DNA of 64,000 nucleotides from Moraxella sp. FZFQ2102. GTDB lineage: Bacteria > Pseudomonadota > Gammaproteobacteria > Pseudomonadales > Moraxellaceae. The stretch spans positions 1,116,001 to 1,180,000 of the forward strand of contig NZ_CP099960.1 of the NCBI RefSeq assembly GCF_024137865.1, given 5' to 3'. Shown piece by piece: positions 910-57,540 of this stretch. Under the pieces are notes generated by a model, which saw only the letters and a list, made by a program, of their open reading frames with translations, had not been told where the DNA came from and made no database searches. Positions within the stretch are counted from its first letter, which is position 1. The number at the start of each line of letters is the position of its first letter. The translations under genes and the position numbers were made by a program.

Positions 910-923
910 GTTTCATGTGAAAC
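910..923. other. parS-like site 1 (TG centre), intergenic
   Basis: GTTTCATGTGAAAC, an exact copy of the repeated 14-mer. It lies between the prpF hairpin and the lipoprotein gene, and is the site farthest left of oriC (about 36 kb). Confidence 0.6.
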
Positions 924-942
924 CTGCTCAATGACAGATCGC

Positions 943-1524
943 TCACTGAGTATCTTGAGCATTCGTTGTTGGTACTGTCTGCACTTCAAAGCGGATGGGC
1001 TTATTAAGTAGTTTTTGTACTTGTTTTTTGATGGCTTCATGATCATCAGCAGGCATAATATCAATGACAATCTCGCCTGTGCGCTCATCGACACCGATGC
1101 CCTGCATGGTGGGCAGCAGCGCTTTAAGCTGCGCAAAATTATCAGGATTATCATAGCTTGCGATCAGCTCATCAATCGTATGCGCTACACCCAATTCAAA
1201 GCGCACAGGATGGTGTTTTGTAAGCGTCTCGGCGCGCTTAGGCAGCGGCTCATTACCAACCACGCGCACCACTAGTTGGTAGCTTGGCTGCCAATCGATA
1301 TATACGCCTGCCAAGCGGTCTTTTAGCAGTGTACGAATTTCATCTCTGACACCGCTCATGTCAGCAGGCTCTACGCGTTGTGTGATGTCATCCGTGCTTT
1401 GTACTACCAATACATCGTTTGATACTTGGGTACTGTGTGATTGCACAGCATGATTCGCTTGATCACAGCCTGTGATACACATTACCATCAGTATGGGCAT
1501 CATGATTGATGTGTGTAATTTCAT
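943..1524 (-). CDS. Hypothetical lipoprotein, unknown function
   Basis: A 193-residue protein that I do not recognise. The start chosen is the second in-frame Met (MKLHTS), because it gives a proper lipoprotein signal: a short basic N-terminus, a hydrophobic core MMPILMVM and a lipobox CITGC with the cysteine near residue 20. An upstream in-frame ATG at 1575 would add 17 residues in front of the signal and lies inside a terminator hairpin. The mature part is hydrophilic and predicted periplasmic, with two segments of alternating hydrophobic residues, YQLVVRVVG and GIGVDERTGEIVIDI, that look like beta strands. It sits downstream of, and in the same direction as, the aminotransferase gene but behind that gene's terminator, so it probably has its own promoter. 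Confidence 0.65.
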   Translation of the reverse strand: MKLHTSIMMPILMVMCITGCDQANHAVQSHSTQVSNDVLVVQSTDDITQRVEPADMSGVRDEIRTLLKDRLAGVYIDWQPSYQLVVRVVGNEPLPKRAETLTKHHPVRFELGVAHTIDELIASYDNPDNFAQLKALLPTMQGIGVDERTGEIVIDIMPADDHEAIKKQVQKLLNKPIRFEVQTVPTTNAQDTQ

Positions 1525-1560
1525 CAATTTTCCATCCAATTTGGTATGACAATCCACCAA

Positions 1561-1592
1561 AAAACCCATTTTCACACTCGAAAATGGGTTTT
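1561..1592 (-). terminator. Terminator of the aromatic aminotransferase gene
   Basis: A 13-bp stem, AAAACCCATTTTC paired with GAAAATGGGTTTT, with a six-base loop. On the minus strand it ends in a T run. It lies 20 bases past the aminotransferase stop. Confidence 0.8.
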
Positions 1593-1612
1593 TGCTTGGG
1601 TGTGATGACTGA

Positions 1613-2809: not shown

Positions 2810-2948
2810 GGTGTTATCCTTATAAAATTAAAAAGTTAATCAAGTAATGCCTACTCAATAACAGTGGTTAATGCTGATTAGTATAACGCAATTTGGCACA
2901 TGATGGGCATAAAATTTCGCCCTTTTGCCGATTTGATTACAATAAAAA

Positions 2949-2974
2949 CCGCCAAAGCAGGATCGCTTCGGCGG
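2949..2974 (-). terminator. Terminator of the LysR gene
   Basis: CCGCCAAAGC pairs with GCTTCGGCGG (9 of 10 pairs) around the loop AGGATC. On the minus strand it is followed by GGTTTTTATT, a T-rich tail. Confidence 0.65.
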
Positions 2975-2981
2975 CAAGGTG

Positions 2982-3905: not shown

Positions 3906-4021
3906 AAATATCCTTAAAAACTAATAAACCTATCAGATAATATTATAAATTAACCCTGATAAGAATACAAGCACCCTTCAAGCCAAAAAAAAACGGTCGG
4001 CATAATTTGCATCAGCACACA

Positions 4022-15273: not shown

Positions 15274-17112
15274 TTATTCTTCTGCCAAAAATCCCCCACT
15301 TTGGCGCGCCCACAGTGATGCATAGATGCCATCTTTGGCGATCAGCTCATCATGCGTACCCATCTCGACGATACGCCCTGCCTGCATCACCACCAGTCTG
15401 TCCATCGACGCGATGGTTGATAGGCGATGCGCGATGGCGATCACTGTCTTGCCTGCCATCATCTGATCCAGGCTTTGGGTGATGGCGAATTCCACTTCAG
15501 AATCCAGCGCACTGGTCGCTTCATCCAGCAGCAGAATCGGTGCGTTTTTGAGCATCACGCGTGCGATGGCGATACGCTGACGCTGGCCGCCAGACAGCTT
15601 GACGCCGCGTTCGCCGACTTGGGTGTCCAGCCCTGTATTGCCATATTTATCCTTGAGCGTCTGGATAAACTCCCATGCGTGCGCCGCCTTTGCCGCAGCG
15701 ATGATCTCATCATCAGTCGCATCAGGCTTGCCATAGGCGATGTTCTCACGCACCGTGCGATGCAGCAAGCTTGTGTCTTGGGTAACCATGCCGATATTTT
15801 GGCGTAAGGTCTCTTGGGTGATGGTACTAATGTCCTGATCATCGATACGGATCGTACCGCCATCGACATCATAAAATCGCAGCAGTAGATTGACCAGTGT
15901 CGATTTGCCTGCGCCTGATCGCCCGACCAGACCGATTTTCTCGCCTGCTTGGATATTTAGGGTGAACTGATCCAGTAGCGGCGGATTTGTCGATTTACCA
16001 TAATTAAAAGTCACCGCATCGAACGCGATCTTACCCTGTTTCACATGAAACGCCTTAGCATTAGGCGCATCGATGACAGCGTGTGGCGTAGTCAAGGTTT
16101 TCATGCCGTCTTGTACCGTGCCCAAATGCTCAAACAAACTCGCCGTCTCCCACAGCACCCAATGCGTCAAGCCCTGCAAGCGGATTGCCAACGCACCAGC
16201 GACCGCCACCGCGCCTGCACCGACCTGTCCTTGCATCCACAGATACAGACCGATCGCCACAGAGCCCGTCACCGTAATGAGCGCGATACTCGACACGCAG
16301 ATCTCAAGCACACTCACCAAGCGCATTTGTTCATTGACTTTGGATAAGAAGCTTGTCATCGCTTCTTTGGCGTACACCGATTCGCGGCGCGCATGGCTAA
16401 ATAGCTTGACCGTGCTGATATTGGCATAAGCATCGGTGATCCGCCCTGTCATTAGGGCGCGCGCATCGGCTTGTTCTTTTGAACTGCGCTGCAGCTTGGG
16501 TAATAAGAACGCAAGCAAGCCAATCACCATCAGCACCCATCCCACAAAAGGCACAGCCAACAGCGGATGTAGATTAACCAGTACCGCACCTGAGCCAACC
16601 AAAAAGGTGATGATAAACACGAACACGCCGATCACCGTCATCACCACATCGCGTGCCGACAGCGCCGTCTGCATTACTTTTGCCGACACACGCCCAGAGA
16701 ACTCTTCTTGATAAAACTGCATCGACTGTCCCAGCATATGCTGATGAAAAATCCACCGCAGTCGCATCGGCGCAACGCCTTGTAGCACCTGATGATGCAC
16801 GGTTGTCTCAAACACCATCACCACAGGCACACAGACACTGATGGCAAGCATCACCATCAGCTCATCGCGCTTATCCGCCCACAGCTGACCAGGGCTCAGC
16901 ACACTCATCCAGTCGATGATCTGCCCGACCCACGCATACACGAGCGCCCAATACAGCCCTGATAACGCCGTCAGAAGCGTAAATGCCACAAGCCAACCGC
17001 GAAACCCTGTCGTGCACGCATAGATGAACGAGATGAGCGAGCCGTCGGTCTTGGGCAAGCTGACATCAGGAAAAGGATCAAGGCGTTTTTCAAAATAACC
17101 AAATAAAGACAT
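15274..17112 (-). CDS. ABC exporter, fused permease-ATPase (MsbA-like)
   Basis: A 612-residue half-transporter. About six transmembrane helices occupy residues 30-320, followed by an ATPase domain. Walker A GLVGRSGAGKSTLVN is near residue 395, the signature KLSGGQRQRIAIARVML near residue 500, and Walker B ILLLDEATSALDSE follows it directly; the H-loop is IAIAHRLSTI. It would work as a homodimer in the inner membrane, exporting lipid or drug. It lacks a partner gene. The linker between the domains carries a parS-like site, read as FHVKQG, which sits in a region where these proteins vary. Confidence 0.9.
   Translation of the reverse strand: MSLFGYFEKRLDPFPDVSLPKTDGSLISFIYACTTGFRGWLVAFTLLTALSGLYWALVYAWVGQIIDWMSVLSPGQLWADKRDELMVMLAISVCVPVVMVFETTVHHQVLQGVAPMRLRWIFHQHMLGQSMQFYQEEFSGRVSAKVMQTALSARDVVMTVIGVFVFIITFLVGSGAVLVNLHPLLAVPFVGWVLMVIGLLAFLLPKLQRSSKEQADARALMTGRITDAYANISTVKLFSHARRESVYAKEAMTSFLSKVNEQMRLVSVLEICVSSIALITVTGSVAIGLYLWMQGQVGAGAVAVAGALAIRLQGLTHWVLWETASLFEHLGTVQDGMKTLTTPHAVIDAPNAKAFHVKQGKIAFDAVTFNYGKSTNPPLLDQFTLNIQAGEKIGLVGRSGAGKSTLVNLLLRFYDVDGGTIRIDDQDISTITQETLRQNIGMVTQDTSLLHRTVRENIAYGKPDATDDEIIAAAKAAHAWEFIQTLKDKYGNTGLDTQVGERGVKLSGGQRQRIAIARVMLKNAPILLLDEATSALDSEVEFAITQSLDQMMAGKTVIAIAHRLSTIASMDRLVVMQAGRIVEMGTHDELIAKDGIYASLWARQSGGFLAEE
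16038..16051. other. parS-like site 2 (CA centre), in the ABC exporter gene
   Basis: GTTTCACATGAAAC, exact copy of the 14-mer. On the gene strand it encodes FHVK in the linker between the permease and ATPase domains. Confidence 0.6.
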
Positions 17113-17704: not shown

Positions 17705-20137
<2,433 letters not shown>

Positions 20138-24451: not shown

Positions 24452-24465
24452 GTTTCACATGAAAC
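24452..24465. other. parS-like site 3 (CA centre), intergenic avtA / decarboxylase
   Basis: GTTTCACATGAAAC, exact 14-mer, followed by ATC as in most copies. It lies between avtA and the decarboxylase gene. Confidence 0.6.
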
Positions 24466-24489: not shown

Positions 24490-25665
24490 TCACTCGATGT
24501 ATTTGACTTTCAGTGGTGGGAAACCGTTAAATTCTACTGAAGAATAAGAATTGGTATAAGCCCCTGTGGTCAGCCAATACAGCTTATCGCCAATCTCAAG
24601 ATCTTGTGGCAGTTTATAAGCGGCGTGCTCATACATGATGTCGGTGCTGTCACAGGTTGGACCCGCCAAAATCACCGTGCCTTTTTCGGTGGCGGTTTCC
24701 ATTTTTGGCGTATAAACAGGGTATTTGATCGCTTCACCCAAAGTCTCAATCAAGCCTTGGAACAAGCCAACATCGGTATAAACCCAGCGCGTCAAATCGG
24801 TGCGTGATTTGCGGCTGATCAGCACGACTTCCGACACCAACACACCGCTATCACCGACCATCGAGCGGCCCGGCTCTAGGATAATTTCAGGCATTTCATC
24901 GTCATCATAGTCTTCTGACAGATAGCGATGAATCTCTTCGGCATAGACTTTGACAGGGTTCACTTCACTGATGTAGTTGGTCGGGAAGCCGCCACCCAAG
25001 TTGATCATTTTTAACTGAATATTTTCTTCATATTTCATCCAGTCAAACATATATTTGACCTTGGCAAGCGCATCATCCCACGCCGCGACATCTTTTTGCT
25101 GACTGCCGACATGGAACGAGATACCATAAGGCACAAGCCCTAAGTTCTTGGCTTGTACAAGCAGATCCACCGCCATATCAGGGTGGCAGCCAAATTTACG
25201 CGACAATGGCCACTCGGCAGTGTCCGCGCCGTGTACAAGAATGCGCACAAAGACTTTTGAACCAGGGGCATTATTAGCAATATTGATTAGATCCGCTTTA
25301 GAATCAGTGGCGTACAAGGTGATGCCTTTTTCAAAAGCATATTTGACATGCGCGGCTTTTTTGATGGTATTGCCATAAGAAATGCGATCAGGCGAGACGC
25401 CACAGTCTAGCACACGATCAAGCTCATAAATCGATGCGCAGTCAAAATTTGAACCCAAATCCGCCAAATATTTCACCACTTCCACCGCAGGACTGGCTTT
25501 CATCGCATAATGAATTTTGGCTTTTGGGAATAAGCTGACCATCTCTTCATATTTGGTCTTGATGCGGCTGAGATCCACGACAAGCAGCGGCGTGTCTTCA
25601 CCTTCGGCAGCTTGGGTGAATTTTTGCCATTGCAATTGGTCAAAATATTGATCAATCTTAATCAT
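24490..25665 (-). CDS. Ornithine/lysine decarboxylase, fold-III PLP type
   Basis: A 391-residue decarboxylase of the alanine-racemase-fold (type III) class, like eukaryotic ornithine decarboxylase. It makes putrescine from ornithine, and often cadaverine from lysine. The PLP lysine is K56 in IHYAMKASP. The glycine loop NLGGGFPTNY is near residue 224, EPGRSMVGD near residue 272, and the active-site cysteine of the partner subunit is C338 in GPTCDSTD. Ornithine-only versus dual specificity cannot be decided by eye. It is transcribed towards avtA, separated from it by 97 bases with a parS-like site. Confidence 0.88.
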   Translation of the reverse strand: MIKIDQYFDQLQWQKFTQAAEGEDTPLLVVDLSRIKTKYEEMVSLFPKAKIHYAMKASPAVEVVKYLADLGSNFDCASIYELDRVLDCGVSPDRISYGNTIKKAAHVKYAFEKGITLYATDSKADLINIANNAPGSKVFVRILVHGADTAEWPLSRKFGCHPDMAVDLLVQAKNLGLVPYGISFHVGSQQKDVAAWDDALAKVKYMFDWMKYEENIQLKMINLGGGFPTNYISEVNPVKVYAEEIHRYLSEDYDDDEMPEIILEPGRSMVGDSGVLVSEVVLISRKSRTDLTRWVYTDVGLFQGLIETLGEAIKYPVYTPKMETATEKGTVILAGPTCDSTDIMYEHAAYKLPQDLEIGDKLYWLTTGAYTNSYSSVEFNGFPPLKVKYIE

Positions 25666-33225: not shown

Positions 33226-34452
33226 TTATACAGCGACAAACTCACCCTGTTTCACATGAAACATCTGATAGCTATTCATCGCTACAGCAGGGAGGTCAGT
33301 GGTGGTATCGAGCAGTGATTGCTGAAGTTGATTTTTAAGTTTTTGTTGAATAACAGCATGAAGATCATCATGTAAGCTTGTGATGATGATCTGACAAGGC
33401 AGGGATAATACCGCATCTAATAGCACATCGATCGCCTGCGCATCAAGCTCAGCATCGATGTCATCGATCAGTACAGTCGGTGGGTTAATTAGGTGCGTTA
33501 CCGCGGCGGATTGATCGCTTTGCTGTGTGATCATTTCACAGACCAAAGTCAATTGCGATAACCGCAGTGCAGTGATGAGTAGCTTTTTTTCACCGCGTGA
33601 TAAGATGTGGGTTGCCGCTTCGGTTTGTGCCGCTTCATCCGCTGCTGACATTGTCATCAGCACCAAGACATCAGCACGATGCGCACCTACGCGCGTATAG
33701 CCAAGCTCAATGTCCGCCATCGTACGCGCAGATAAAATCGCTTGCAAAGACTGACTGCTGTCAAATCCTGCATGATAGCTTAAGTGTAGCTTATCTTGAT
33801 AATCTGGCAATAATTTACCCAGCATATTGGCAAAGTGTAACTGCCACTGATCAAACACCTGTCTGCGACAAACATCAATCTGCTCGGCATACAAGGACAA
33901 TTGCCCATCCCACGCGGTCAGCTCTGCCAATCTTTGGCGAATGCCGCGCTGCTTAAGCAGACTGTTTCGCTGCTTGAGTAGTCGCTGATAATTGAGCCAT
34001 GCTTGATAAAAATCAGGTTTCACATGAAACGCCAACCAATCGATCAGCTGACGGCGATTACTACTACCTTCATCCAATAGACTCATGCTTGACGGATCGA
34101 TCAATAGCATCGGCAGATGAAAACTGAGTGCACTTTGTGATGGCAAGGGCAGCTGATTCATGCGAATCTGTGTATCGCTTTTACCTTGGGTGTCCAGCTG
34201 TTTTTTGATGGCGATGCTGGCAGTTTCACCGAAGTTTGTACTTGCCCACACCACACAGTTATCCTTGTGATGACTGATGTAACGACGCGGCTCATGATGG
34301 CGAAAACTGCGCCCGCGTGACAGCAAAAACACCGATTCTAATAAAGAAGTCTTGCCACTGCCATTTTCACCGACCACCAAATTACAACGGGCAAGTGAAA
34401 GATTCACCTGCCCCAGATTGCGAAAATGATGGATGCTCAGACGCTCAATCAT
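33226..34452 (-). CDS. recF: DNA recombination/repair protein RecF
   Basis: A 408-residue SMC-like ATPase that loads RecA at gaps in single-stranded DNA. Walker A is LVVGENGSGKTSLLES (residues 25-40). The signature LSRGEKKLLITALRLSQL is near residue 287, and Walker B VLIDDIDAELDAQ near residue 335. It is somewhat longer than the 360-residue norm. It contains two parS-like sites: one in FHVKPD near residue 142, where the family itself conserves FHV, and one close to the C-terminus (MFHVKQGEFVAV), in a tail extension. It lies between dnaN (24 bases upstream) and gyrB. Confidence 0.95.
   Translation of the reverse strand: MIERLSIHHFRNLGQVNLSLARCNLVVGENGSGKTSLLESVFLLSRGRSFRHHEPRRYISHHKDNCVVWASTNFGETASIAIKKQLDTQGKSDTQIRMNQLPLPSQSALSFHLPMLLIDPSSMSLLDEGSSNRRQLIDWLAFHVKPDFYQAWLNYQRLLKQRNSLLKQRGIRQRLAELTAWDGQLSLYAEQIDVCRRQVFDQWQLHFANMLGKLLPDYQDKLHLSYHAGFDSSQSLQAILSARTMADIELGYTRVGAHRADVLVLMTMSAADEAAQTEAATHILSRGEKKLLITALRLSQLTLVCEMITQQSDQSAAVTHLINPPTVLIDDIDAELDAQAIDVLLDAVLSLPCQIIITSLHDDLHAVIQQKLKNQLQQSLLDTTTDLPAVAMNSYQMFHVKQGEFVAV
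33249..33262. other. parS-like site 4 (CA centre), 3' end of recF
   Basis: GTTTCACATGAAAC within a perfect 16-base TGTTTC..GAAACA context (33248-33263). On the gene strand it encodes FHVK in the RecF C-terminal tail. Confidence 0.65.
34017..34030. other. parS-like site 5 (CA centre), within recF
   Basis: GTTTCACATGAAAC, exact 14-mer, encoding FHVK at a position where RecF proteins commonly have FHV. Confidence 0.6.
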
Positions 34453-35664: not shown

Positions 35665-37047
35665 TTACGCGTATTCTAACATCATCTTTAGCTTATGATA
35701 ATCCGTTTCGATGCTAGGATCGGTCATTTTCAGTTCTTCAATCTTCTCGCACGCGTGCATTACGGTCGTATGATCGCGTCCACCGAACACCTGCCCGATC
35801 TCAGGAAAGCTGTCGCGCGTCACTTCACGGATCAGCGCCATCGCCATTTGGCGTGGACGGGCAATATTGCGCGCGCGCTTTTTACCCATCAGATCTTTGG
35901 GCGAAATCTCATAAAATTCCGCCACCAAATCACGAATACTCTCAGCATTCAAAGCACGGGCGCGAGATTGCACTTGATCGCGAATGGCATCACGCACCAG
36001 TGCCATGGTGACAGGCACGCCTTTTAAGTCAGCAGACATACGCACATTTTTAAGCGCACCTTCAAGACCACGCACATCAGGCGGTAAGTTTTGCGCCATA
36101 AAAATCGCACAATCTCTGGGCAGATCAATCTGTAATAGGCTTGCCTTTTTCTCCAAAATCTGTACACGCATCTCCATATCAGGCGGTAAAATAGCCAAGG
36201 ATAAACCACCTGATAAGCGTGAAATGCTACGATCATCAAAATTGGTCATCTGCGACGGCGGACGATTCGACGCCATCACCACCTGCTTACCAGGCTGAGA
36301 AAAATGCTCGAACAAAGTCATTAAAATCTCAGTGACTTTTGGTGCTTTTTTGCCATCGTACATGTGCATGTCATCGATGATCAACAAATCTGCGGCGCAA
36401 ATCTCTTTTTTAAATTTATCAATCTTATCATTGACCACCGCTTTGAGCGTCGTGCTATAAAAATGCTCTTTGGTGAAATAAAAAAACGATTTGCCGTATT
36501 TTTGGTAGCGATGTGCCATGGCATGCATCAGGTGTGTCTTACCAAGCCCTGATGAACCATAAATAAAAATCGGACCATAGTTGTACTTGCTGTCTTTTTT
36601 GGACAGCTCATTACACGCATTGTACGCATCTTGATTAGCGCGCCCCTTGACAAAGCCATCAAAGGTAAAGGTCGGATCAATTGACAAGCTTTCAACGACT
36701 GCTGTCGATGTCTTAGTGCGCGCGGCAGCTTTTGGTTTTGCCTTAGTACTTGGTGTGGTGCTGACCACCATCTCCACACGCACATCACTGATCGCACCCT
36801 GACCATAAGTAGTTACCAATGCCTTGATGCGTGCCAAATAGCTATTGACATGATTGACAAAAATCGCATTTGGCGCAAGCAAAATCAGCACGCCATCATC
36901 CAACTGCGGACGCAGTGGTGTGATCCATTGGCGGTAGTCTTTTTCTTGCAGCTCCATCTGCAAGTCAGCCAAGCACTGTTGCCACACCTGGCTGCCATCA
37001 GCATGCTCTGACACGCTTTGACTAAATTCATCGGCAAACAAACTCAT
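35665..37047 (-). CDS. dnaA: Chromosomal replication initiator DnaA
   Basis: A 460-residue AAA+ initiator that binds TTATCCACA boxes and opens oriC. Domain I (residues 18-90) has VWQQCLADLQMELQEKDYRQ; a lysine/alanine/threonine-rich linker follows (about 95-120). The AAA+ domain has Walker A FIYGSSGLGKTHLMHA near residue 161 and Walker B DLLIIDDMHMYDG. The DNA-binding domain ends with the DnaA signature FGGRDHTTVMHACEKI. The start MSLFADE at 37047 is preferred; the frame extends upstream to 37071 with non-conserved residues. It is divergent from rpmH across oriC. Confidence 0.97.
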   Translation of the reverse strand: MSLFADEFSQSVSEHADGSQVWQQCLADLQMELQEKDYRQWITPLRPQLDDGVLILLAPNAIFVNHVNSYLARIKALVTTYGQGAISDVRVEMVVSTTPSTKAKPKAAARTKTSTAVVESLSIDPTFTFDGFVKGRANQDAYNACNELSKKDSKYNYGPIFIYGSSGLGKTHLMHAMAHRYQKYGKSFFYFTKEHFYSTTLKAVVNDKIDKFKKEICAADLLIIDDMHMYDGKKAPKVTEILMTLFEHFSQPGKQVVMASNRPPSQMTNFDDRSISRLSGGLSLAILPPDMEMRVQILEKKASLLQIDLPRDCAIFMAQNLPPDVRGLEGALKNVRMSADLKGVPVTMALVRDAIRDQVQSRARALNAESIRDLVAEFYEISPKDLMGKKRARNIARPRQMAMALIREVTRDSFPEIGQVFGGRDHTTVMHACEKIEELKMTDPSIETDYHKLKMMLEYA

Positions 37048-37071
37048 GACCCAACCTACCCAGCAATCCAA

Positions 37072-37938
<867 letters not shown>

Positions 37939-40813: not shown

Positions 40814-42211
40814 ATGAACACATCGACCCAACTGCCCACCATTGCCGCCATCGCCACACCCATTGGACAAGGGGGTGTGGGCGTCATTCGCCTGTCGGGT
40901 AAGGCAGCTTATGAGATTGGTTGCGCCATCACGCGCCGCGATCATCTAACGCCGCGCATGGCACATTTTGGCGGCTTTTATGGGATAGACGGCATCATTG
41001 ATGAAGGGGTGGTGATTTATTTTAAAGCACCACATTCATTCACTGGTGAAGATGTGGTGGAGCTGCAGGGACATGGCGGCATGGTGTTACAAAATATGCT
41101 GCTGGCGCGCGTGTTTGAGCTTGGTGCGCGCCAAGCGACGGCGGGTGAGTTTTCTTATCGCGCCTTTGAAAATGACAAGATGGATTTGGTGCAAGCTGAA
41201 GCCATCAGCGATGCCATCGCTGCCACTTCCACCGCTCAAGCCAGCAGTGCCATTCGCTCACTGACTGGGGAATTTTCCCACAAAATCAATCACTTGGTGG
41301 ATGAGCTGACGCATTTGCGTCTATATGTCGAAGCGGCGATTGACTTTCCTGATGAAGAAGATGTGGATTTTTTGGGTGATGGTGTGATCGAGTCCAAGAT
41401 CAATTCGGTGCTTGGTGGCATTGATGCGATTTTGGATACTGCCAAGCAAGGACAGCTGCTTCGCGATGGTGTGCATGTGGTGCTGGCAGGTAAGCCCAAT
41501 GCAGGCAAATCAAGCCTACTAAACCGCTTATCCGGCACGGAGCGCGCCATCGTCACGGACATCGCAGGGACGACACGCGATACGCTCGAAGAGACTTTGG
41601 TATTGGGTGGCTTGACCGTGCATTTGACGGACACTGCAGGGCTTCGTGATACGGTAGATAAGGTTGAGCAAATCGGTATTGCGCGCGCGTTTGATGCTAT
41701 TAAAAAAGCCGATGTACTGCTGATGGTCTATGATGTCAATACCGAGCATGATCCGCTTGCCTTGGCGCATGAGCTGTTCGCTGCTGAATTGGATACCGAG
41801 ATGGGTGAGATTATCCGCCAAAAGCTGATCATGGTTGCTAATAAATGCGATTTGCTGGACGCTTTGCCTGAAGCAGGTGTTTCACATGAAACAAATGATA
41901 CACCAAAAATTGTCCATGTTTCATGTGAAACATCTTATGGTATTGATACACTGGTACAAGTGCTGAGTGATAAAGTGGGCTTTCATCCACCAGAAAATAG
42001 TCTGATCGCACGCACGCGTCACATTGATGCCCTAAAGCGCGCTAAAGCATTTACCTTAGAAGCGCATGAGCAGCTGACAGTGTATCATGCTGGGGAGTTG
42101 GTGGCGGACAGCCTAAGATTGTCCCAACAAGCTTTAGGTGAGATCACAGGGCAGATGAGCGCCGATGAATTATTGGGTAAAATTTTCTCAAGCTTTTGTA
42201 TTGGCAAATAA
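40814..42211 (+). CDS. mnmE: tRNA modification GTPase MnmE
   Basis: A 465-residue GTPase that, with MnmG, modifies the wobble uridine of several tRNAs. An N-terminal formyl-THF-binding domain starts TIAAIATPIGQGGVGVIRLS. The G domain carries G1 LAGKPNAGKSSLLN near residue 224, the switch region IAGTTRDTLEE, G3 DTAGLRD and G4 NKCD. The protein ends in the family CIGK. Two parS-like sites lie in the G domain, read as VSHET (about residue 356) and VSCET (about residue 369). The second falls where MnmE proteins have the G5 loop, usually SAxTG. The usual neighbour mnmG is not adjacent. Confidence 0.95.
   Translation: MNTSTQLPTIAAIATPIGQGGVGVIRLSGKAAYEIGCAITRRDHLTPRMAHFGGFYGIDGIIDEGVVIYFKAPHSFTGEDVVELQGHGGMVLQNMLLARVFELGARQATAGEFSYRAFENDKMDLVQAEAISDAIAATSTAQASSAIRSLTGEFSHKINHLVDELTHLRLYVEAAIDFPDEEDVDFLGDGVIESKINSVLGGIDAILDTAKQGQLLRDGVHVVLAGKPNAGKSSLLNRLSGTERAIVTDIAGTTRDTLEETLVLGGLTVHLTDTAGLRDTVDKVEQIGIARAFDAIKKADVLLMVYDVNTEHDPLALAHELFAAELDTEMGEIIRQKLIMVANKCDLLDALPEAGVSHETNDTPKIVHVSCETSYGIDTLVQVLSDKVGFHPPENSLIARTRHIDALKRAKAFTLEAHEQLTVYHAGELVADSLRLSQQALGEITGQMSADELLGKIFSSFCIGK
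41879..41892. other. parS-like site 6 (CA centre), within mnmE
   Basis: GTTTCACATGAAAC within a perfect TGTTTC..GAAACA 16-mer (41878-41893). It encodes VSHET. Confidence 0.65.
41918..41931. other. parS-like site 7 (TG centre), within mnmE G5 region
   Basis: GTTTCATGTGAAAC within a perfect 16-mer (41917-41932), 39 bases from site 6 and in the opposite orientation. It encodes VSCET. Confidence 0.65.
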
Positions 42212-43889: not shown

Positions 43890-44196
43890 TTGACTGTATA
43901 GTAGATTTGGCAATAAAACAAGTTATCCACAGCTTGATTTGTATGAAAATTAGACAAATGAAAGGCTTAAAATGTTTCATGTGAAACTGTGGATAACTGC
44001 TAAAACCATATGATTTTCTGAGTTAATTTTTATCATAAAATATTGATTTTTAATGATTTTATATAAAAATTAGCTCGTAGAAGTATTTTATAAATCCCTT
44101 GTGGATAACTTTGATTTTGCCAAATTGCTTGAAAAAGATACACAATAACCAAATAAAGTTATCCACAACCCAATCAATAACAATAAGAGAAAAACC
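43890..44196. other. DnaA-box cluster with AT-rich core, ribD-ribE intergenic
   Basis: A 307-base region without a gene. It carries four perfect DnaA boxes: forward TTATCCACA at 43923-43931 and 44159-44167, and reverse TGTGGATAA at 43988-43996 and 44100-44108. A parS-like site (43974-43987) abuts the second box. An AT-rich stretch (about 44010-44097) lies between the middle boxes. Box number and perfection equal those of oriC, 6.6 kb away. The layout suggests a DnaA-titrating or auxiliary-origin locus. It may also contain the ribE promoter, so DnaA could affect ribE. Confidence 0.75.
43974..43987. other. parS-like site 8 (TG centre), abutting a DnaA box
   Basis: GTTTCATGTGAAAC; the next base starts the perfect DnaA box TGTGGATAA (43988-43996). 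It is one of three intergenic copies. Confidence 0.65.
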
Positions 44197-44862
44197 ATGT
44201 TTACAGGAATTATTGAAACCACAGGTACAATCAAGGCGGTCAATCAAGTTGGTGGTGATGTTGAACTTGTCATCTCTGCGCCTGATTTGGATTTTGGTGA
44301 TGTGCAATTGGGCGATTCGATCGCGTCAAACGGCATCTGTCTGACGGTGGTATCCATCGGTGATAAGAGCTACGCGGTGGATGTTTCCCGTGAAACCTTG
44401 AGCAAATCGGCACTGAAAAACTGGCGTGTCGGCGATACCATCAATCTAGAAAAAGCGATGTTGCCAACCACGCGATTTGGCGGTCATATCGTCGCAGGTC
44501 ATGTCGATGGTGTCGGCGTGGTGCGCCACATCGCCAAAGACGCACGCTCGATTTATATCGAGATCGAGATTCCTAGCGAGCTGATGCGCTATACAGCCGA
44601 TAAAGGCTCGATCACTGTCGATGGCATCAGCCTTACCAGCAATGCCATCAAGCCTGCACAAAACTTGGTGTGTTTAAACATCATCCCACACACTGCTGAG
44701 CGCACCAACATTGCGCGTCACTGGTCGGTGGGTGCATTGGTGAATATCGAAGTGGATTTGGTCGCGCGCTACCTTGAGCGACTGCTGCTGTCGAATAAAA
44801 CTGACAGCAAACCAATCAGTAATATCACCGAAGAGACATTAGCGAAAGCTGGATTTATCTGA
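44197..44862 (+). CDS. ribE: Riboflavin synthase alpha chain
   Basis: A 221-residue enzyme that dismutates two lumazine molecules into riboflavin. Two lumazine-binding repeats are visible: MFTGIIETTGTIKAVNQVGG at the start, and GGHIVAGHVDGVGVVRHIAK near residue 99 opening the second. The first repeat contains GDSIASNGICLTVV and the conserved VSRETLSKS, whose DNA is a degenerate parS-like string. AGAGAAA precedes the ATG. It is separated from ribD by the DnaA-box cluster; ribH is not seen. Confidence 0.94.
   Translation: MFTGIIETTGTIKAVNQVGGDVELVISAPDLDFGDVQLGDSIASNGICLTVVSIGDKSYAVDVSRETLSKSALKNWRVGDTINLEKAMLPTTRFGGHIVAGHVDGVGVVRHIAKDARSIYIEIEIPSELMRYTADKGSITVDGISLTSNAIKPAQNLVCLNIIPHTAERTNIARHWSVGALVNIEVDLVARYLERLLLSNKTDSKPISNITEETLAKAGFI
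44383..44396. other. Degenerate parS-like string in ribE
   Basis: GTTTCCCGTGAAAC, one base from the canonical CG-centred core. It encodes VSRET, which riboflavin synthases conserve, so it may be coincidence of codon choice. Confidence 0.3.
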
Positions 44863-45008: not shown

Positions 45009-46022
45009 ATGAGTCTAATCAACACCCAATCAGGCAAGCTGCGCGTGGTATTTGCGGGGACACCTGAATTTGCAGCGGTCAGTCTTAAGCATCTGATTTC
45101 GCATCAAGATGATCTAAATATCGAGATCGTCGCTGTCTATACACAGCCAGATCGCAAATCAGGGCGTGGGCAAAAAGTCACCCCATCGCCTGTCAAGCAA
45201 GTGGCATTGGCACATGATATTGCTGTTGAGCAGCCTGTGAGCTTTAGCTTAAAGCATGAGTTTGGGCAAGTTTCACGTGAAACTTTAGCAGCGTATCACC
45301 CCGATGTCATGGTGGTGGCTGCCTATGGTTTGATCTTGCCGCTGGGTGTGCTTAATACGCCAAGCCTAGGTTGTATCAATATTCATGGTTCGCTGCTGCC
45401 AAAATGGCGCGGCGCTGCACCGATTCAGCGTGCGATCTTGGCAGGTGATGAGAAGACGGGCATCACCATCATGCAGATGGCACAAGGACTGGACACAGGC
45501 GATATGCTGTATAAGATGGAATGCGACATCAGTGATACCGATACCACGCAAAGTTTGCATGATAAGCTTGCGGAATTGGGCGCGCAGGCTGTTGCGACTG
45601 TCTTGGCTGATTTGCCAAAATATCAGGCAGCAGCAGTGGTGCAAGATGATGCACTTGCCAATTATGCTGAAAAAATCCATACCGCCGATGGGCAGATCAA
45701 TTGGCAAAATTCTGCTTATTATATCCAGCGACAAATCCGCGCATTGAACTGCTTTACCCATCTGAATGGTGAGCGTATCAAGGTAATCTCAGCCATGCCA
45801 ATTAAAGCGGATCAAGTGACAACAGTCGCCGCTGGTACGGTGATTAGTGTCGGCAAAAATGCTATCTTGGTTTCATGTGGAACAGATGATACAGGTGTAC
45901 AGCATTTGATCAATATCACAAGCCTACAATGGGCAGGCGGCAAGCTGCTAACTTCAGAACAAATTGCCAATTCAGATAAAATTAATGATGGCGATGTATT
46001 CGAGATGATTGTCAATGAGTGA
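45009..46022 (+). CDS. fmt: Methionyl-tRNA formyltransferase
   Basis: A 337-residue enzyme that formylates initiator Met-tRNA. Family marks are VVFAGTPEFAAVSLKHLI at residue 13 onward, VYTQPDRKSGRGQK near residue 45, the catalytic INIHGSLLPKWRGAAPIQRA near residue 122 and the QMAQGLDTGDML segment. Its N-terminus has about ten extra residues. A canonical parS core is embedded, read as VSRET near residue 88, and a degenerate copy, read as VSCGT, is further on. The stop overlaps the rsmB start, so the two are coupled. A very AT-rich 146-base gap lies upstream. Confidence 0.95.
   Translation: MSLINTQSGKLRVVFAGTPEFAAVSLKHLISHQDDLNIEIVAVYTQPDRKSGRGQKVTPSPVKQVALAHDIAVEQPVSFSLKHEFGQVSRETLAAYHPDVMVVAAYGLILPLGVLNTPSLGCINIHGSLLPKWRGAAPIQRAILAGDEKTGITIMQMAQGLDTGDMLYKMECDISDTDTTQSLHDKLAELGAQAVATVLADLPKYQAAAVVQDDALANYAEKIHTADGQINWQNSAYYIQRQIRALNCFTHLNGERIKVISAMPIKADQVTTVAAGTVISVGKNAILVSCGTDDTGVQHLINITSLQWAGGKLLTSEQIANSDKINDGDVFEMIVNE
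45270..45283. other. Canonical parS core (CG centre), within fmt
   Basis: GTTTCACGTGAAAC in a fully palindromic 16-base context (AGTTTC..GAAACT, 45269-45284). It is the only copy with the classical CG centre, and encodes VSRET. Confidence 0.75.
45870..45883. other. Degenerate parS-like string in fmt
   Basis: GTTTCATGTGGAAC, one mismatch in the right arm relative to the TG-centred 14-mer. It encodes VSCGT. Confidence 0.35.
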
Positions 46023-47376
46023 TATTATCAAAAAACTGAACAATAAAAAGCTATCTAGCCGCGCTAAAGTTATCTTAGTTATTGAAGAAATTTTACACGG
46101 GAAGTCATTATCAACCCTGCTTGATGAATTATTGGTAGGGGTGGATGAGCAGGACCGCGGCTTTGTGCATGAGCTGACACTTGGCACGCTGCGCCATTGG
46201 TGGGCATTATCACGCATTCATGAAAGTCTGATCGAAAAAGCACCGACAGATCACGGCGTGGTCGCTGCACTAAATATTGGACTGTATCAGCTTTTGTACA
46301 TGAATACCGCACATTATGCCGCGATCAATGATACGGTAGAATCGCTAAAATCTTTGGATAAAGGTTATAGCGCAGGTCTTGTTAATGCGGTATTGCGCAA
46401 GATACAAAAATCTGCTGCCAAATACCAAAAAAAGGTGCAAAAAAACCACAGCCTACCCAATTGGCTTGCCAAGCAGCTTAAGCAAGATTGGGTGGAATAC
46501 TATGATGAATTGGGTGTACAGTTAAGATGCCCTGCGCCGATTTTCCTGCGCGTCAATACACGCAAAATTAGCACCACTGATTATTCACAATTACTAACAA
46601 ATAATAATATCGCTCATACGCTGATGCCGTTGGGTTTGGCAGATGCTACAACCATTCGTTTGGATGAGCAGATGCGCATCACTGCCCTGCCGCATTTTGC
46701 TGATGGTTATGTCAGTGTGCAGGATATGTACGCGCAGCTGACAGCGTATTTATTGGCGGATTATCTGCCCAAATCTACCGATGACACACCTGACCACCAT
46801 CCAAAACGCGTGCTGGATATGTGCTGCGCCCCTGGTGGCAAGACAGCACAGCTGCTCGAAATGTTTCACATGAAACATCTGACTGCCATCGATAATGACG
46901 CGCATCGCCTAAAGCGCGTGCATGAAAACTTATCGCGATTGGGCTTGGATGATGCGCGCGCAAGCATTGTGACGGCTGATGGTACGACTTGGCAGGCTGA
47001 TGAGCCATTCGATGTTGTTGTGCTTGATGCGCCTTGCACCGCCACGGGCGTGATTCGTCGCCACCCTGACATTGCACTGCTACGAAGTGCTGATGATGTC
47101 ATTAATACGGTTGAATTGCAGCGGCAAATCCTTGAAAATACTTGGCGGCAGCTGAAAACTGGTGGCGTGCTTTTGTATGTTACTTGCTCGATTTTAAAGG
47201 CGGAAAATGAGCAGCAACTAAGCAGTTTTCTAGCCAATCACAGCGATGCCAAAGCTGTGCCATTTACACTGAATCTGCCAAACCAAATCGCCCAAAGTGT
47301 CGGCTATCAATGCTTGCCAATCGATGCACAAGGCGGTGATGGCTTTTATTATGCACTGCTAGAAAAAGTGGCGTAA
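46015..47376 (+). CDS. rsmB: 16S rRNA m5C967 methyltransferase RsmB
   Basis: A 453-residue SAM-dependent methyltransferase. An N-terminal NusB-like domain (about residues 1-140) is followed by the catalytic domain with MCCAPGGKTAQLLE near residue 263, DAPCTATGVIRRHPDI and the catalytic-cysteine motif VTCSILKAEN. The start MSDIIKKL at 46015 overlaps the fmt stop. A parS-like site, read as FHMKH, lies between the SAM-binding loop and the next strand, a variable position. fmt-rsmB is a conserved pair. Confidence 0.94.
   Translation: MSDIIKKLNNKKLSSRAKVILVIEEILHGKSLSTLLDELLVGVDEQDRGFVHELTLGTLRHWWALSRIHESLIEKAPTDHGVVAALNIGLYQLLYMNTAHYAAINDTVESLKSLDKGYSAGLVNAVLRKIQKSAAKYQKKVQKNHSLPNWLAKQLKQDWVEYYDELGVQLRCPAPIFLRVNTRKISTTDYSQLLTNNNIAHTLMPLGLADATTIRLDEQMRITALPHFADGYVSVQDMYAQLTAYLLADYLPKSTDDTPDHHPKRVLDMCCAPGGKTAQLLEMFHMKHLTAIDNDAHRLKRVHENLSRLGLDDARASIVTADGTTWQADEPFDVVVLDAPCTATGVIRRHPDIALLRSADDVINTVELQRQILENTWRQLKTGGVLLYVTCSILKAENEQQLSSFLANHSDAKAVPFTLNLPNQIAQSVGYQCLPIDAQGGDGFYYALLEKVA
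46863..46876. other. parS-like site (CA centre), within rsmB
   Basis: GTTTCACATGAAAC within a perfect 16-mer TGTTTC..GAAACA (46862-46877), with further ATG/CAT symmetry outside. It encodes FHMK. Confidence 0.65.
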
Positions 47377-50107: not shown

Positions 50108-50708
50108 GATTTTTCGCCAAGAGATGCTGACTGAAGCGGCAGCATATTTGCACGCAGGTGGTGTGCTTGCCTATCCGAGCGAGAGCGTGTGGGGATTGGG
50201 CTGTGATGCCTTTGATGCTGCTGCACTTGAGCGGGTGATTGCACTGAAATCTCGTGATGTTGGCAAGGGCTTGATTGTCTTGACTGACAGCGCCGATCGG
50301 CTTGGGTCGCTGCTGAATGTTTCACATGAAACATTCCTTGATATTGACCAATTGCAGCAGTATTCGCTGAATTTTACTCAAGAACACGCGCGTGCTTTGA
50401 CTTGGCTTGTACCTGTCAAATCAGGCGTTCTGCCCAAAGTCTTGACAGGTGCGCATACATCGCTTGCGGTGCGTATCACCACACATCCGCTGCTTGCCAA
50501 GCTGTGCGCCGAGATGGTAAGCGCGCACAATCCTTATGGCTTGTTGGTCTCGACCAGTTGCAATCTATCAGGACAAGCACCTGCCACGACACTTGATACT
50601 GCGATGGCAGCATTTGGCGATCGTGTGGCTTATCTGGATGCTGAAGGGCTAGGCTTTGATCAGCCAAGCTGTATCATGGATTTGGTGACGGGTAAGGTGC
50701 TGCGTTGA
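50094..50708 (+). CDS. tsaC: L-threonylcarbamoyladenylate synthase TsaC
   Basis: A 204-residue YrdC/Sua5-family enzyme that makes threonylcarbamoyl-AMP for the t6A37 modification of tRNAs. Seen are LAYPSESVWGLGCDAFD near residue 24, ALTWLVPVKSGVLP near residue 100, VRITTHPLLAKL and LVSTSCNLSGQAPATT. The ATG at 50094 overlaps the end of dprA. A parS-like site lies in it (VSHET near residue 77). It follows dprA, the common dprA-tsaC order. Confidence 0.93.
   Translation: MVDAKIFRQEMLTEAAAYLHAGGVLAYPSESVWGLGCDAFDAAALERVIALKSRDVGKGLIVLTDSADRLGSLLNVSHETFLDIDQLQQYSLNFTQEHARALTWLVPVKSGVLPKVLTGAHTSLAVRITTHPLLAKLCAEMVSAHNPYGLLVSTSCNLSGQAPATTLDTAMAAFGDRVAYLDAEGLGFDQPSCIMDLVTGKVLR
50319..50332. other. 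parS-like site (CA centre), within tsaC
   Basis: GTTTCACATGAAAC in a perfect 16-mer (50318-50333), encoding VSHET. Confidence 0.65.
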
Positions 50709-50871: not shown

Positions 50872-50898
50872 GTTTTTATGTGCTAAACAAGGGGGTGG

Positions 50899-53885: not shown

Positions 53886-53913
53886 AAAAAAGCACCAATT
53901 ACGGTGCTTTTTT
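53886..53913 (-). terminator. Terminator of the GlsB-like gene
   Basis: AAAAAAGCACC pairs with GGTGCTTTTTT around AATTAC, 18 bases past the stop. Confidence 0.88.
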
Positions 53914-53930
53914 TGTGCAAGGTGTGCGAT

Positions 53931-55597: not shown

Positions 55598-55708
55598 GAT
55601 TTTTACCTTTTTTATTGTTGTTTATGAAAAATTTTGAAAATCAATCCAAAAAATATGCCACTACTATGGGGGCGTTTGGCTCATTATAAAGGGTTTTGGA
55701 AAAATTTG

Positions 55709-56950
55709 TTAGCCATTTTTTAGCCAATTAATAAAGGCATAACTCGTCTGTTCTTTTTGATTATCGCCAAATTCATAAAAGCGCGCATCCAGTAAATTAT
55801 CAGGCAAATACTGCTGTGGGTAATAGTGATTGGGATAATCATGCGGATAAATATAGCCGACGCCATAGCCGTCTGATTTCATAAGCCTGGTAACACCATT
55901 TCGTAGGTGCAGCGGCACGGGCGATTGGTCGGTTTCGGCAAGTTTCATCGCGGCATTGATGGCGTTGTAGCTGGTGTTTGACTTAGGGCTATTGGCAAGA
56001 TACACCACCGCTTGCCCCAGAATAATGCGCGCTTCGGGCATACCGATGGACTGCACTGAGCGCAGGGCAGTGTCGGCGATCAGTAGCGCATTGGGATTGG
56101 CAAGTCCGATGTCTTCACTGGCAGCGATTACCAGTCTGCGCGCGATAAAGGCAGGATCTTCGCCCGCGCTCAGCATTCGCGCCATCCAGTACAGCGCCGC
56201 ATCCGCATCCGTGCCGCGGATGGATTTGATCATCGCTGATACCAGATCGTAGTGATTGTCCCCTGATTTGTCATAGCGCACCAGTGACTGCCCTGCCACG
56301 GCGGTGACGCTTTGATTATCGATGATCACAGGCTCAGCCCCAGCTGCCACAAGCTCCAACAAATTCAGCGCGCGCCTTCCATCGCCTTGGGATAGGTCGA
56401 TGAGCGCGGTTAAGTCATTGATGATGATTTGTTTGGTTTTTAGTACGCTATCTTTATAAATAGCGCGGTCGATGAGCGCGGTGATTTCATCGGCGCTTAG
56501 GGGGTTTAATTTATACACTTGGCAGCGCGACAGCAGGGCATTATTGACGCTGAACGATGGATTTTCGGTGGTTGCACCAATAAAGGTAATCTCGCCTGTT
56601 TCGACCGCTTGTAGTAGTGCATCTTGTTGGGCTTTATTAAAGCGATGAATCTCATCGACGAAGACCACAGGCGGCTCGTGGAATAAGCCATCATCTGCCG
56701 TCAGCACTTCGCGCAGCTCTTTGACGCCGCTACTGATGGCGGATAAGGGGCGAAACGGTCGGTTTACCGCATGGGCAAGCAGCATGGCGATCGTCGTCTT
56801 GCCAATGCCTGCTGAGCCGTGTAGGATGATCGATGGCAAAAAACCTTGGCGGATGATGTTCGATAAAGGCGCGCCTTGTCCTAATAGATGGCTTTGTCCG
56901 ATGACATCATCAAGGCGTGTCGGTCGCATTCGTTCGGCGAGTGGTTTCAT
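55709..56950 (-). CDS. rarA: Replication-associated recombination protein A (RarA/MgsA)
   Basis: A 413-residue AAA+ ATPase of the clamp-loader family that acts at stalled forks. The start MKPLAERMRPTRLDDVIGQ at 56950 is the family start; the frame extends 31 codons upstream without similarity and would overlap the divergent gene. Walker A is ILHGSAGIGKTTIAMLLA near residue 45, Walker B VVFVDEIHRFNKAQQ near residue 98, and sensor 1 is GATTENPSFSVN. C-terminal tetramer-domain motifs are present (EDIGLANPNAL, PKSNTSYNAINAA). It is divergent from the HELTH protein gene. Confidence 0.94.
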   Translation of the reverse strand: MKPLAERMRPTRLDDVIGQSHLLGQGAPLSNIIRQGFLPSIILHGSAGIGKTTIAMLLAHAVNRPFRPLSAISSGVKELREVLTADDGLFHEPPVVFVDEIHRFNKAQQDALLQAVETGEITFIGATTENPSFSVNNALLSRCQVYKLNPLSADEITALIDRAIYKDSVLKTKQIIINDLTALIDLSQGDGRRALNLLELVAAGAEPVIIDNQSVTAVAGQSLVRYDKSGDNHYDLVSAMIKSIRGTDADAALYWMARMLSAGEDPAFIARRLVIAASEDIGLANPNALLIADTALRSVQSIGMPEARIILGQAVVYLANSPKSNTSYNAINAAMKLAETDQSPVPLHLRNGVTRLMKSDGYGVGYIYPHDYPNHYYPQQYLPDNLLDARFYEFGDNQKEQTSYAFINWLKNG

Positions 56951-57066
56951 GGTAAATTGCCCAATAGCAAAAGTTATGCTATTGTAGCATGGATTATTTT
57001 TGTGTACCAAACGCAGATATTGCCCAGTCATACTCAGCCACACCCTGTTATCATTTAACCATACCT

Positions 57067-57540
57067 ATGTTCTCCAATCCTTTGACTTATCCTAAGCTTA
57101 GCCGTGCCTTGAGTGATGGCGAAAAAGCGATCGCCAAAAGTGTGTTTGGTGATGCCATTGATCTTGAGAGTATTCGGCTAAAGACAGCGTGGTGGGTGCT
57201 AAAGGGCTTTGCAGTGTCGCCTAATGGCAATATCTATTTTCACCCTGATGACTGGATGGAAGATGTTTCATGTGAAACATTGATGCGCCGTGCGTGGCTG
57301 ATCCATGAGCTGACCCATGTGTGGCAGGTGCAGCAAGGGCGTGCGGTGTTTTGGCGAGCATTATTTAACCGCAAATACCGCTATCAATTCGATGGCAAGG
57401 ATTTTGGTCGCTATGGCGTCGAGCAGCAGGCGCGCATGGTTGAAGAGTATTATATCCGCCGCGAGATGGGATTGGACTGTAGTGCGTGGCAGGCGTGTGT
57501 GCCATTTTTGCCTAATTTGCCTGATAAAGAACTTGTCTGA
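57067..57540 (+). CDS. Small HELTH-motif protein, vgr-related (putative metallopeptidase-like)
   Basis: A 157-residue protein of a family often annotated as vgr-related or DUF4157-like. It has ALSDGEKAIAKSVFGDAIDL near residue 13, FAVSPNGNIYFHPDDW near residue 48 and a zinc-peptidase-like LIHELTHVWQVQQGR near residue 77 (HExxH). No signal peptide or membrane segment is seen. The start MFSNPLTYP is chosen because upstream residues look non-conserved, but the ribosome site is poor. Function is unproven. A parS-like site sits just before the HELTH motif, read as VSCET. Confidence 0.7.
   Translation: MFSNPLTYPKLSRALSDGEKAIAKSVFGDAIDLESIRLKTAWWVLKGFAVSPNGNIYFHPDDWMEDVSCETLMRRAWLIHELTHVWQVQQGRAVFWRALFNRKYRYQFDGKDFGRYGVEQQARMVEEYYIRREMGLDCSAWQACVPFLPNLPDKELV
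57265..57278. other. parS-like site (TG centre), within the HELTH protein gene
   Basis: GTTTCATGTGAAAC in a perfect 16-mer (57264-57279). It encodes VSCET and is the rightmost copy, about 20 kb from oriC. Confidence 0.65.

What the first reader, a model, noticed from the sequence alone, without database searches (positions are those of the whole stretch)
910..57278. Dense field of CA/TG-centred parS-like sites spread around oriC
The exact 14-mer GTTTCACATGAAAC or its reverse complement occurs 11 times in 64 kb (starts 910, 16038, 24452, 33249, 34017, 41879, 41918, 43974, 46863, 50319, 57265). With equal base frequencies, about 0.0005 copies would be expected. One classical parS core with CG centre (45270) and two degenerate copies (44383, 45870) add to it. 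Density is highest within about 13 kb of oriC and thins on both sides. The classical ParB site is TGTTTCACGTGAAACA, so this looks like a lineage with a changed central pair. Most genomes have only a few parS sites; a dozen in 57 kb is unusual. No parA or parB gene is in the window.
Basis: partly seen in the sequence, partly recalled or inferred. Interest (0 to 1): 0.78.

Follow-up and report, generated by a model that had tools for sequence, protein, structure and literature searches.

The report
Centromere sites dodging an avoided word
The repeated sequences look like the bacterium's centromere-like parS sites around its replication origin; almost all have swapped the two bases at their centre, most likely because the standard centre contains ACGT, a four-letter word this genome almost never uses.

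Summary
Confirmed: 11 exact CA/TG-centred 14-mers, one CG copy and two degenerate copies lie where stated. The 2.34-Mb chromosome has 14 GTTTCAYRTGAAAC sites (13 CA/TG, 1 CG), all within 137 kb of oriC, 12 within 37 kb. One ParB gene was found, about 753 kb from oriC. These are parS sites in all but direct binding proof; the number is ordinary.

New: ACGT, the core of classical parS, is the most avoided tetramer in the window (5 seen, 109 expected). Of 21 readable genomes of the genus, 8 avoid ACGT and all 8 have mostly CA/TG sites; of the other 13, 10 have mostly CG, 2 tie, 1 has mostly CA/TG. Orthologous positions swap centres while ParB's recognition helix stays the same.

Against: only two independent clades carry the link. 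A second, Psychrobacter-like genus mixes both centres without such a link, and three of its genomes are nearly all CA/TG. Tolerance of CA/TG is probably older; ACGT avoidance is the likeliest driver here, not a universal one.

The parts
910..923 (-). parS-type site, CA/TG centre, intergenic
16038..16051 (+). parS-type site, CA/TG centre, inside an ABC-transporter gene (15274-17112 -)
   Evidence: same position with a TG-centred site in G020
24452..24465 (+). parS-type site, CA/TG centre, intergenic next to a PLP-dependent decarboxylase gene (24490-25665 -)
33249..33262 (+). parS-type site, CA/TG centre, recF codons near 397
   Evidence: at this position 5 of 5 sites of ACGT-avoiding genomes are CA/TG and 7 of 7 of the others are CG
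34017..34030 (+). parS-type site, CA/TG centre, recF codons near 141
   Evidence: 4 of 4 sites of avoiding genomes CA/TG; of the others 7 CG, 2 CA
37072..37805. oriC region between dnaA (35665-37071 -) and rpmH (read by eye), with six DnaA-box-like 9-mers at 37242-37449
   Evidence: (turn of cumulative GC skew)
41879..41892 (+). parS-type site, CA/TG centre, mnmE codons near 356 (loop of variable length; Val-Ser-His-Glu)
41918..41931 (-). parS-type site, CA/TG centre, mnmE codons near 369 (Val-Ser-Cys-Glu)
   Evidence: CA/TG in 13 of 13 sites mapped to codon 369, CG-type genomes included, so probably set by the protein's Cys; two sites mapped to codons 366 and 367 (G016, G008) are CG
43974..43987 (-). 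parS-type site, CA/TG centre, intergenic before ribE
44383..44396 (+). remnant of a parS in ribE (codons near 63): TCC in place of TCA, ACGT absent, protein VSRETL kept
   Evidence: full CG site in 9 of 12 non-avoiding genomes, absent in 8 of 8 avoiding ones
45270..45283 (+). the one classical CG-centred parS, in fmt (codons near 88)
   Evidence: CG in 17 of 20 genomes, including 6 of 8 ACGT-avoiding ones
45870..45883 (-). parS-type site GTTCCACATGAAAC, in fmt (codons near 288)
   Evidence: also in G003 and G020
46863..46876 (+). parS-type site, CA/TG centre, rsmB codons near 285
   Evidence: CA/TG in 8 of 8 avoiding genomes; CG in 7 of 10 others shown, no site in 3, none CA/TG
50319..50332 (+). 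parS-type site, CA/TG centre, in a Sua5/YrdC-domain gene (codons near 79)
57265..57278 (-). parS-type site, CA/TG centre, in an ORF without a Pfam match (56989-57540 +)

Best explanation
This is the chromosome's array of parS sites, where the CTP-dependent ParB clamp loads before spreading and being moved by ParA (loading and spreading inferred from the family). The ParB of this lineage accepts CA/TG as well as CG at the centre; each CA/TG site keeps one perfect arm (GTTTCAC) and one arm with a single transition (GTTTCAT). That tolerance left the centre free to change. In this genome and in a second clade of the genus ACGT is almost banned genome-wide, probably by past or present restriction-modification, and the ban pushed the sites from CACGTG to CACATG/CATGTG. 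Where the centre encodes an arginine kept in most relatives (ribE), the site was recoded away instead. At fmt one classical site was kept in most avoiding genomes. Shown here: the sites, their clustering, their orthology, the ACGT deficit, the difference in centres and the unchanged recognition helix. Inferred: ParB binding, the direction of change, and restriction as the cause. Confidence by step: parS identity about 0.93; tolerance rather than a ParB switch about 0.75; ACGT avoidance as driver in this genome about 0.58.
For: Clustering: 14 of 14 sites within 137 kb of oriC, 12 within 37 kb. One ParB with ParB_N, HTH_ParB and ParB_C domains. ACGT is the lowest of 256 tetramers in the window relative to its sub-words, 5 against 109. 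Whole-genome AACGTT/TTGCAA is 0.007-0.12 in 8 genomes of the genus and at least 0.19 in the other 13 readable ones. All 8 have CA/TG majorities (85 of 97 sites); the 13 have 126 of 157 CG (GTTYCACATGRAAC and GTTYCACGTGRAAC counted over whole genomes, sums mine); Fisher p 4e-5. Orthologous positions differ in centre: rsmB285 8 of 8 sites CA/TG against 7 of 7 CG; recF397 5 of 5 against 7 of 7. ribE63: 0 of 8 avoiding genomes keep the CG site, 9 of 12 others do; the 8 keep VSRETL and lack ACGT, with five different codon pairs. The recognition helix of this genome equals that of CG-type G002, G005 and G012. Three g2 genomes poor in AACGTT but not in CACGTG keep CG sites 7:0 (G106, G122, G175).
Against: The link rests on two independent clades; the paired test gives p 0.5 and cannot reach significance. 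In genus g15, 105 genomes, the median CA/TG share is 0.53 with no correlation with CACGTG depletion (rho 0.08, p 0.43), and G260, G261 and G296 are 15:1, 13:1 and 13:1 for CA/TG with ACGT o/e of 0.90, 0.86 and 0.86 in fetched stretches. G017 is 4:1 for CA/TG with ACGT o/e 0.74. All 3 ribE63 losses in non-avoiding genomes of the genus (G008, G017, G019) also lack ACGT, so the way of loss discriminates little. G125 and G142 have low CACGTG ratios yet CG sites 4:0, though their fetched stretches show no ACGT deficit. No enzyme of ACGT specificity was identified; C5-methyltransferases were found in only 4 of the 8 avoiding genomes. In Burkholderia chromosome 1 all symmetric changes of parS except at positions 1/16 and 5/12 abolished ParB binding (PMC5450999, passages and section 18). 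The cut between 0.12 and 0.19 was set after seeing the values.
Confidence: 0.53

Rival explanations
1. ParB itself changed its preference: in some lineages it now reads CA/TG better than CG, and the sites followed.
For: G260, G261 and G296 are nearly all CA/TG without an ACGT deficit in fetched stretches. In G260, G261 and G331 the ribE position has GTG in place of GTT while CACGTG remains, as if CG sites had lost their use there.
Against: Within the window's genus the recognition helix and the GHAR stretch do not separate the two types. From residue 75 on one column separates the compared classes, refpos 239, with several residues on both sides. ParB of two of the eight avoiding genomes (G015, G020) was not found, so six were compared. 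fmt keeps the CG site in 6 of 8 avoiding genomes. ParB of G260, G261 and G296 was not fetched.
Confidence: 0.2
2. Neutral turnover: ParB tolerates CA/TG, coding needs and drift decide each site, and the match with ACGT avoidance is a coincidence of two clades.
For: Only two independent pairs. The mixture in genus g15 shows no correlation with CACGTG depletion. The mnmE369 site is CA/TG in 13 of 13 genomes, probably because the protein keeps Cys. Losses of the ribE site lack ACGT in non-avoiding genomes too (3 of 3).
Against: CA/TG majorities in all 8 avoiding genomes against 1 of 13 others. At rsmB285 and recF397 the split by ACGT habit is complete. The ribE site is kept in 0 of 8 against 9 of 12.
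Confidence: 0.24
3. The repeats are not ParB sites but targets of another factor or a mobile repeat.
For: ParB binding was not tested.
Against: One arm is the perfect parS heptamer and the other differs by one base. The flanks of the window copies are unalike apart from a preference for T before and A after. Classical CG sites occupy the same codons in relatives.
Confidence: 0.03

Closest known systems
Chromosomal parS (TGTTTCACGTGAAACA type) of ParABS systems
   Same: Arms GTTTCAC/GTGAAAC, clustering at oriC, a chromosomal ParB with standard domains.
   Different: 13 of 14 sites have a non-palindromic CA/TG centre. parAB lies about 753 kb (32% of the chromosome) from oriC, whereas a review places par operons in the ori domain (PMC7022226, passages).
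Pseudomonas parS (TGTTCCACGTGGAACA)
   Same: A lineage-wide variant of parS, changed at positions 5/12 (PMC5450999, section 18). P. aeruginosa parS5, TGTTCTACATGGAACA, also has CATG at its centre and is bound most weakly of ten (PMC4368675, passages).
   Different: The Pseudomonas change is symmetric and leaves the CG centre; here the centre itself differs, asymmetrically.
Noc binding site (NBS) of the ParB/Noc family
   Same: A specificity variant within the same protein family (PMC7383237, passages and section 9).
   Different: NBS differs from parS at positions 1 and 6, not at the centre, and goes with changed residues 173 and 201; Arg and Gly are kept here (residue mapping is mine).
Restriction-site avoidance in genomes (recalled as a general phenomenon)
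   Same: Strong deficit of short words (ACGT, GAGG/CCTC, CCGG, GGCC).
   Different: Here it appears to reshape a whole set of functional DNA-binding sites. I found no report of this for parS, in searches (20 of 646 listed) and 77.

Membership tests
chromosomal parS | Two inverted heptamer arms GTTTCAC/GTGAAAC | tested here: inconclusive
   All 14 sites keep one perfect arm; in 13 the other arm has one transition at the centre.
chromosomal parS | Clustering near oriC | tested here: met
   14 of 14 within 137 kb, 12 within 37 kb, of 2.34 Mb.
chromosomal parS | Chromosomal ParB with HTH_ParB domain in the same genome | tested here: met
chromosomal parS | Conserved positions in relatives, including classical sites | tested here: met
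chromosomal parS | Palindromic CACGTG core (consensus) | tested here: not met
   13 of 14 sites have CACATG/CATGTG. This is the consensus, not the functional definition.
chromosomal parS | Bound by ParB and supports ParB loading | not testable with these tools
   needs a binding assay or ChIP-seq
Noc binding site | A at position 1 and C at position 6 of the half-site; Noc-type residues Gln173 and Arg201 in the protein | tested here: not met
   Sites have G at position 1 and A at position 6; ParB keeps Arg and Gly (mapping mine).
restriction-driven avoidance of ACGT | ACGT strongly under-represented beyond its sub-words | tested here: met
   5 against 109 in the window; 64 against 280 in eight further 20-kb stretches of the genome.
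restriction-driven avoidance of ACGT | A restriction-modification system of ACGT specificity | tested here: inconclusive
   Two C5-methyltransferase loci in this genome; one lies beside a protein that matches the BbrUII/HgiDII nuclease model over 477 residues at 465 bits, below its cut-off of 550; the other is of unknown specificity. N4/N6 methyltransferases were not searched genome-wide.

The most novel reading that the evidence does not exclude
Restriction-type avoidance of one tetranucleotide has rebuilt a bacterial centromere. Nearly every copy of a segregation site set changed its two central bases in concert, in at least two clades, without a change in the protein's recognition helix, because the protein tolerated the new centre.
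Probability: 0.48. Interest if true: 0.75.

Novelty: new variant of a known kind. Interest (0 to 1): 0.6.

Why it matters
It would show how a set of functional sites can change together under a genome-wide compositional ban rather than by co-evolution with its protein, and it makes the role of the parS centre in ParB loading testable with natural variants. It also warns that scans for the exact CACGTG consensus miss most parS sites in such genomes (here 13 of 14).

Tried and rejected
ParB specificity switch: rejected for this genus on unchanged helices, kept as a rival for G260, G261 and G296. CpG depletion: rejected, CG is at 1.04 of expectation in the window. An orientation code in the asymmetric centre: left of oriC 4 plus and 1 minus, right of it 3 and 3, so no clear pattern. 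Finding the ACGT enzyme: C5-methyltransferases do not follow the avoidance; 177 relatives of the nuclease candidate were found and none of the 120 listed bears a telling name. Naming relatives through RecF failed; ParB worked. AACGTT alone as a stand-in for ACGT would have misled for G106, G122 and G175, so CACGTG was counted too. Rows dropped: G007 was fetched (four stretches), stopped the script by a count of no C or no G, and was left out from then on. G014 was counted but looks like a mixture: its two ParB-bearing contigs have 0 of 25.5 and 32 of 62.6 expected ACGT. G015 and G020 gave no ParB match and are missing from the ParB comparison. Rfam at E up to 0.01 found nothing in 30000-52000.
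Full report
What is there. The window contains the listed sites at the listed places. The origin lies between dnaA (35665-37071 -) and the rnpA/yidD/yidC/mnmE genes, with six DnaA-box-like 9-mers at 37242-37449 and the turn of the cumulative GC skew. In the whole chromosome GTTTCAYRTGAAAC occurs 14 times (13 CA/TG, 1 CG) against 1 for the reversed control. Distances to oriC run from -123 kb to +136 kb, and 12 of 14 are within 37 kb. One ParB was found, with ParB_N, HTH_ParB and ParB_C domains, at about 400 kb on the chromosome, some 753 kb from oriC; a ParA-type protein (AAA_31) lies upstream.

Are they parS? The arms, the clustering and the presence of ParB fit. The strongest argument is orthology. 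In the genus the sites recur at the same codons of recF (near 141 and 397), mnmE (near 356 and 369), ribE (63), fmt (88) and rsmB (285), and in many relatives those positions carry the classical CG-centred parS (only the stretches fetched were examined, so several genomes lack some genes). ParB binding itself was not testable.

Why CA/TG? Classical parS has CACGTG at its centre, which contains ACGT. In the window ACGT is the lowest of all 256 tetramers relative to its sub-words: 5 seen, 109 expected. GAGG (0.07), CCTC (0.08), CCGG (0.11) and GGCC (0.13) follow; CG itself is not depleted. One of the five ACGTs is the fmt parS. Eight other 20-kb stretches of the genome give 64 of 280, six of them 0.00-0.15 and two 0.48 and 0.65.

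Comparison within the genus. All 22 genomes held were searched; G007 was dropped as unreadable. Whole-genome AACGTT/TTGCAA splits the 21 into 8 with 0.007-0.12 and 13 with 0.19 or more. ACGT o/e in the fetched stretches of the 8 runs from 0.02 to 0.39 and in the 13 from 0.54 to 0.84, except G014 (0.32 on 5 kb). In the 8, CA/TG-centred sites are the majority in every one (85 of 97 sites together). In the 13, CG is the majority in 10, G014 (2:2) and G019 (6:6) tie, and G017 is 4:1 for CA/TG (126 of 157 sites CG, sums mine; these counts cover whole genomes and were not all checked for distance to oriC). Fisher p is 4e-5; Spearman between CA/TG share and CACGTG/GTGCAC is -0.79, with AACGTT/TTGCAA -0.63. 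On an 11-gene tree (quick method) the 8 form two clades, and the sister group of one of them (G001, G010, G013) is CG-type. That gives two independent pairs; over 200 pairings the centre went the same way in 1.9 of 2 on average and never the other way, which cannot be significant.

Site by site. At rsmB285, 8 of 8 avoiding genomes have CA/TG; of 10 others shown 7 have CG, 3 no site, none CA/TG. At recF397, 5 of 5 sites of avoiding genomes are CA/TG and 7 of 7 of the others CG. At recF141, 4 of 4 are CA/TG against 7 CG and 2 CA. At ribE63 the 8 avoiding genomes all keep VSRETL, have no site and no ACGT there (TCC-CGT, TCA-CGG in four genomes, TCA-AGA, TCT-CGA, TCG-CGC); 9 of 12 others have the full CG site, and the 3 that lost it (G008, G017, G019) lack ACGT as well, two of them with a changed residue. 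So the loss is tied to avoidance, but its form proves little. At fmt88 the classical site survives in 17 of 20 genomes, including 6 of 8 avoiding ones; the other two avoiding genomes carry ACGT-free codons and no site. In P. aeruginosa one high-affinity site near oriC suffices (PMC4368675, abstract and passages), so fmt may be the principal site here; this is inference. In mnmE near 356 the difference changes the protein (Arg against His or Cys) in a loop of variable length, which speaks for a cause at the DNA level. The mnmE369 site is different: CA/TG in 13 of 13 genomes, CG-type ones included, probably because the protein keeps Cys there.

ParB. The recognition helix GKARTTVSNLLRLN of this genome is identical to that of CG-type G002, G005 and G012, and GKARATVSNLLRLN is shared by CA/TG-type G004, G006 and G009 and CG-type G001, G010 and G013. 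One column from residue 75 on separates the compared classes (refpos 239), with several residues on both sides. G015 and G020 could not be compared. So no ParB switch is visible within the genus. The CA/TG sites keep one GTTTCAC heptamer, a unit that P. aeruginosa ParB binds as a half-site (PMC10419367, passages).

Outside the genus. All 348 genomes of the family held were counted. Genus g15 (105 genomes; Psychrobacter is my inference from the named ParB hits) has a median CA/TG share of 0.53 and no correlation with CACGTG depletion (rho 0.08, p 0.43). The seven genomes with ratios under 1 have a somewhat higher median share (0.68 against 0.53, p 0.04, uncorrected, cut set afterwards), but two of the seven are below 0.5. 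G260, G261 and G296 are 15:1, 13:1 and 13:1 for CA/TG without ACGT depletion in fetched stretches. In genus g2 CG is usually the commoner centre; by eye G068, G103, G104 and G169 go the other way, and G169 has ACGT o/e 0.82 on 20 kb. G106, G122 and G175 are poor in AACGTT but not in CACGTG and keep CG sites 7:0, as expected if the whole word ACGT matters; G106 stretches give ACGT o/e 1.11. So tolerance of CA/TG is wider and probably older than the ACGT ban, and other causes of a swap must exist.

The cause of the ban. Restriction avoidance is a usual cause of such deficits (recalled knowledge). This genome has a C5-methyltransferase beside a protein close to the BbrUII/HgiDII nuclease model (465 bits, cut-off 550) and a second C5-methyltransferase locus of unknown specificity. 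I recall, from no call, that HgiDII cuts GTCGAC, MnlI (a Moraxella enzyme) CCTC and MspI (a Moraxella enzyme) CCGG. GTCGAC is at 1 against 11.3 in the window, which would fit. No ACGT enzyme was identified.

Literature. Papers were searched for the CA/TG 14-mers (none), parS with restriction-modification and avoidance (one paper, on Lactobacillus ruminis, listing only), parS with Moraxella (11 listed, none on this by title), parS and ParB with Acinetobacter and Psychrobacter (7, listing only), restriction site avoidance with binding sites (20 of 646 listed, listing only) and Moraxella with ACGT and methyltransferase (none). Livny et al. 2007, the parS survey, is cited in reviews but I did not read it; it may list such sites.

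Noticed in passing
L015:2353-2880 (-), own genome, between parA and parB: A 175-aa ORF begins like ParB's own N-terminus (MSKKRGLGSNRGLDSLL), then has (PVK/PVE) repeats, and ends QREIKRFWQFGLMDAE. Three relatives of 93, 159 and 202 aa and the M. cuniculi copy share the two ends; one search lists records named M. cuniculi, M. canis and M. catarrhalis. Perhaps a separate ParA-stimulating tail without a DNA-binding domain.
   Followed up: partly
G000:C1 near 400 kb: parAB lies about 753 kb from oriC, outside the ori domain where par operons usually sit. In G004, G006, G010 and G012, where both genes are on one contig of over 2 Mb, parB is also about 0.7-0.9 Mb from mnmE (distances mine).
   Followed up: partly
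window, whole: Strong deficits of GAGG/CCTC, CCGG and GGCC besides ACGT.
   Followed up: no
L122:936-3913, own genome: C5-methyltransferase, HTH regulator and a protein close to the BbrUII/HgiDII nuclease model; GTCGAC is rare in the window (1 against 11.3).
   Followed up: partly
window 40814-42211, codons 340-380: MnmE carries a loop of variable length that hosts one to three in-frame parS-type sites in 21 of 21 genomes examined.
   Followed up: partly
window 19781-19882 (-): TPP riboswitch.
   Followed up: no
L143 and L145: One metagenome-assembled Moraxella genome holds two ParB genes on contigs with opposite ACGT habits, so it is probably a mixture of two species.
   Followed up: no
L095 and L097, own genome: Two sampled 20-kb stretches have much more ACGT (o/e 0.48 and 0.65) than the other six; in L097 CCGG and GGCC rise too. 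Possibly recent imports.
   Followed up: no
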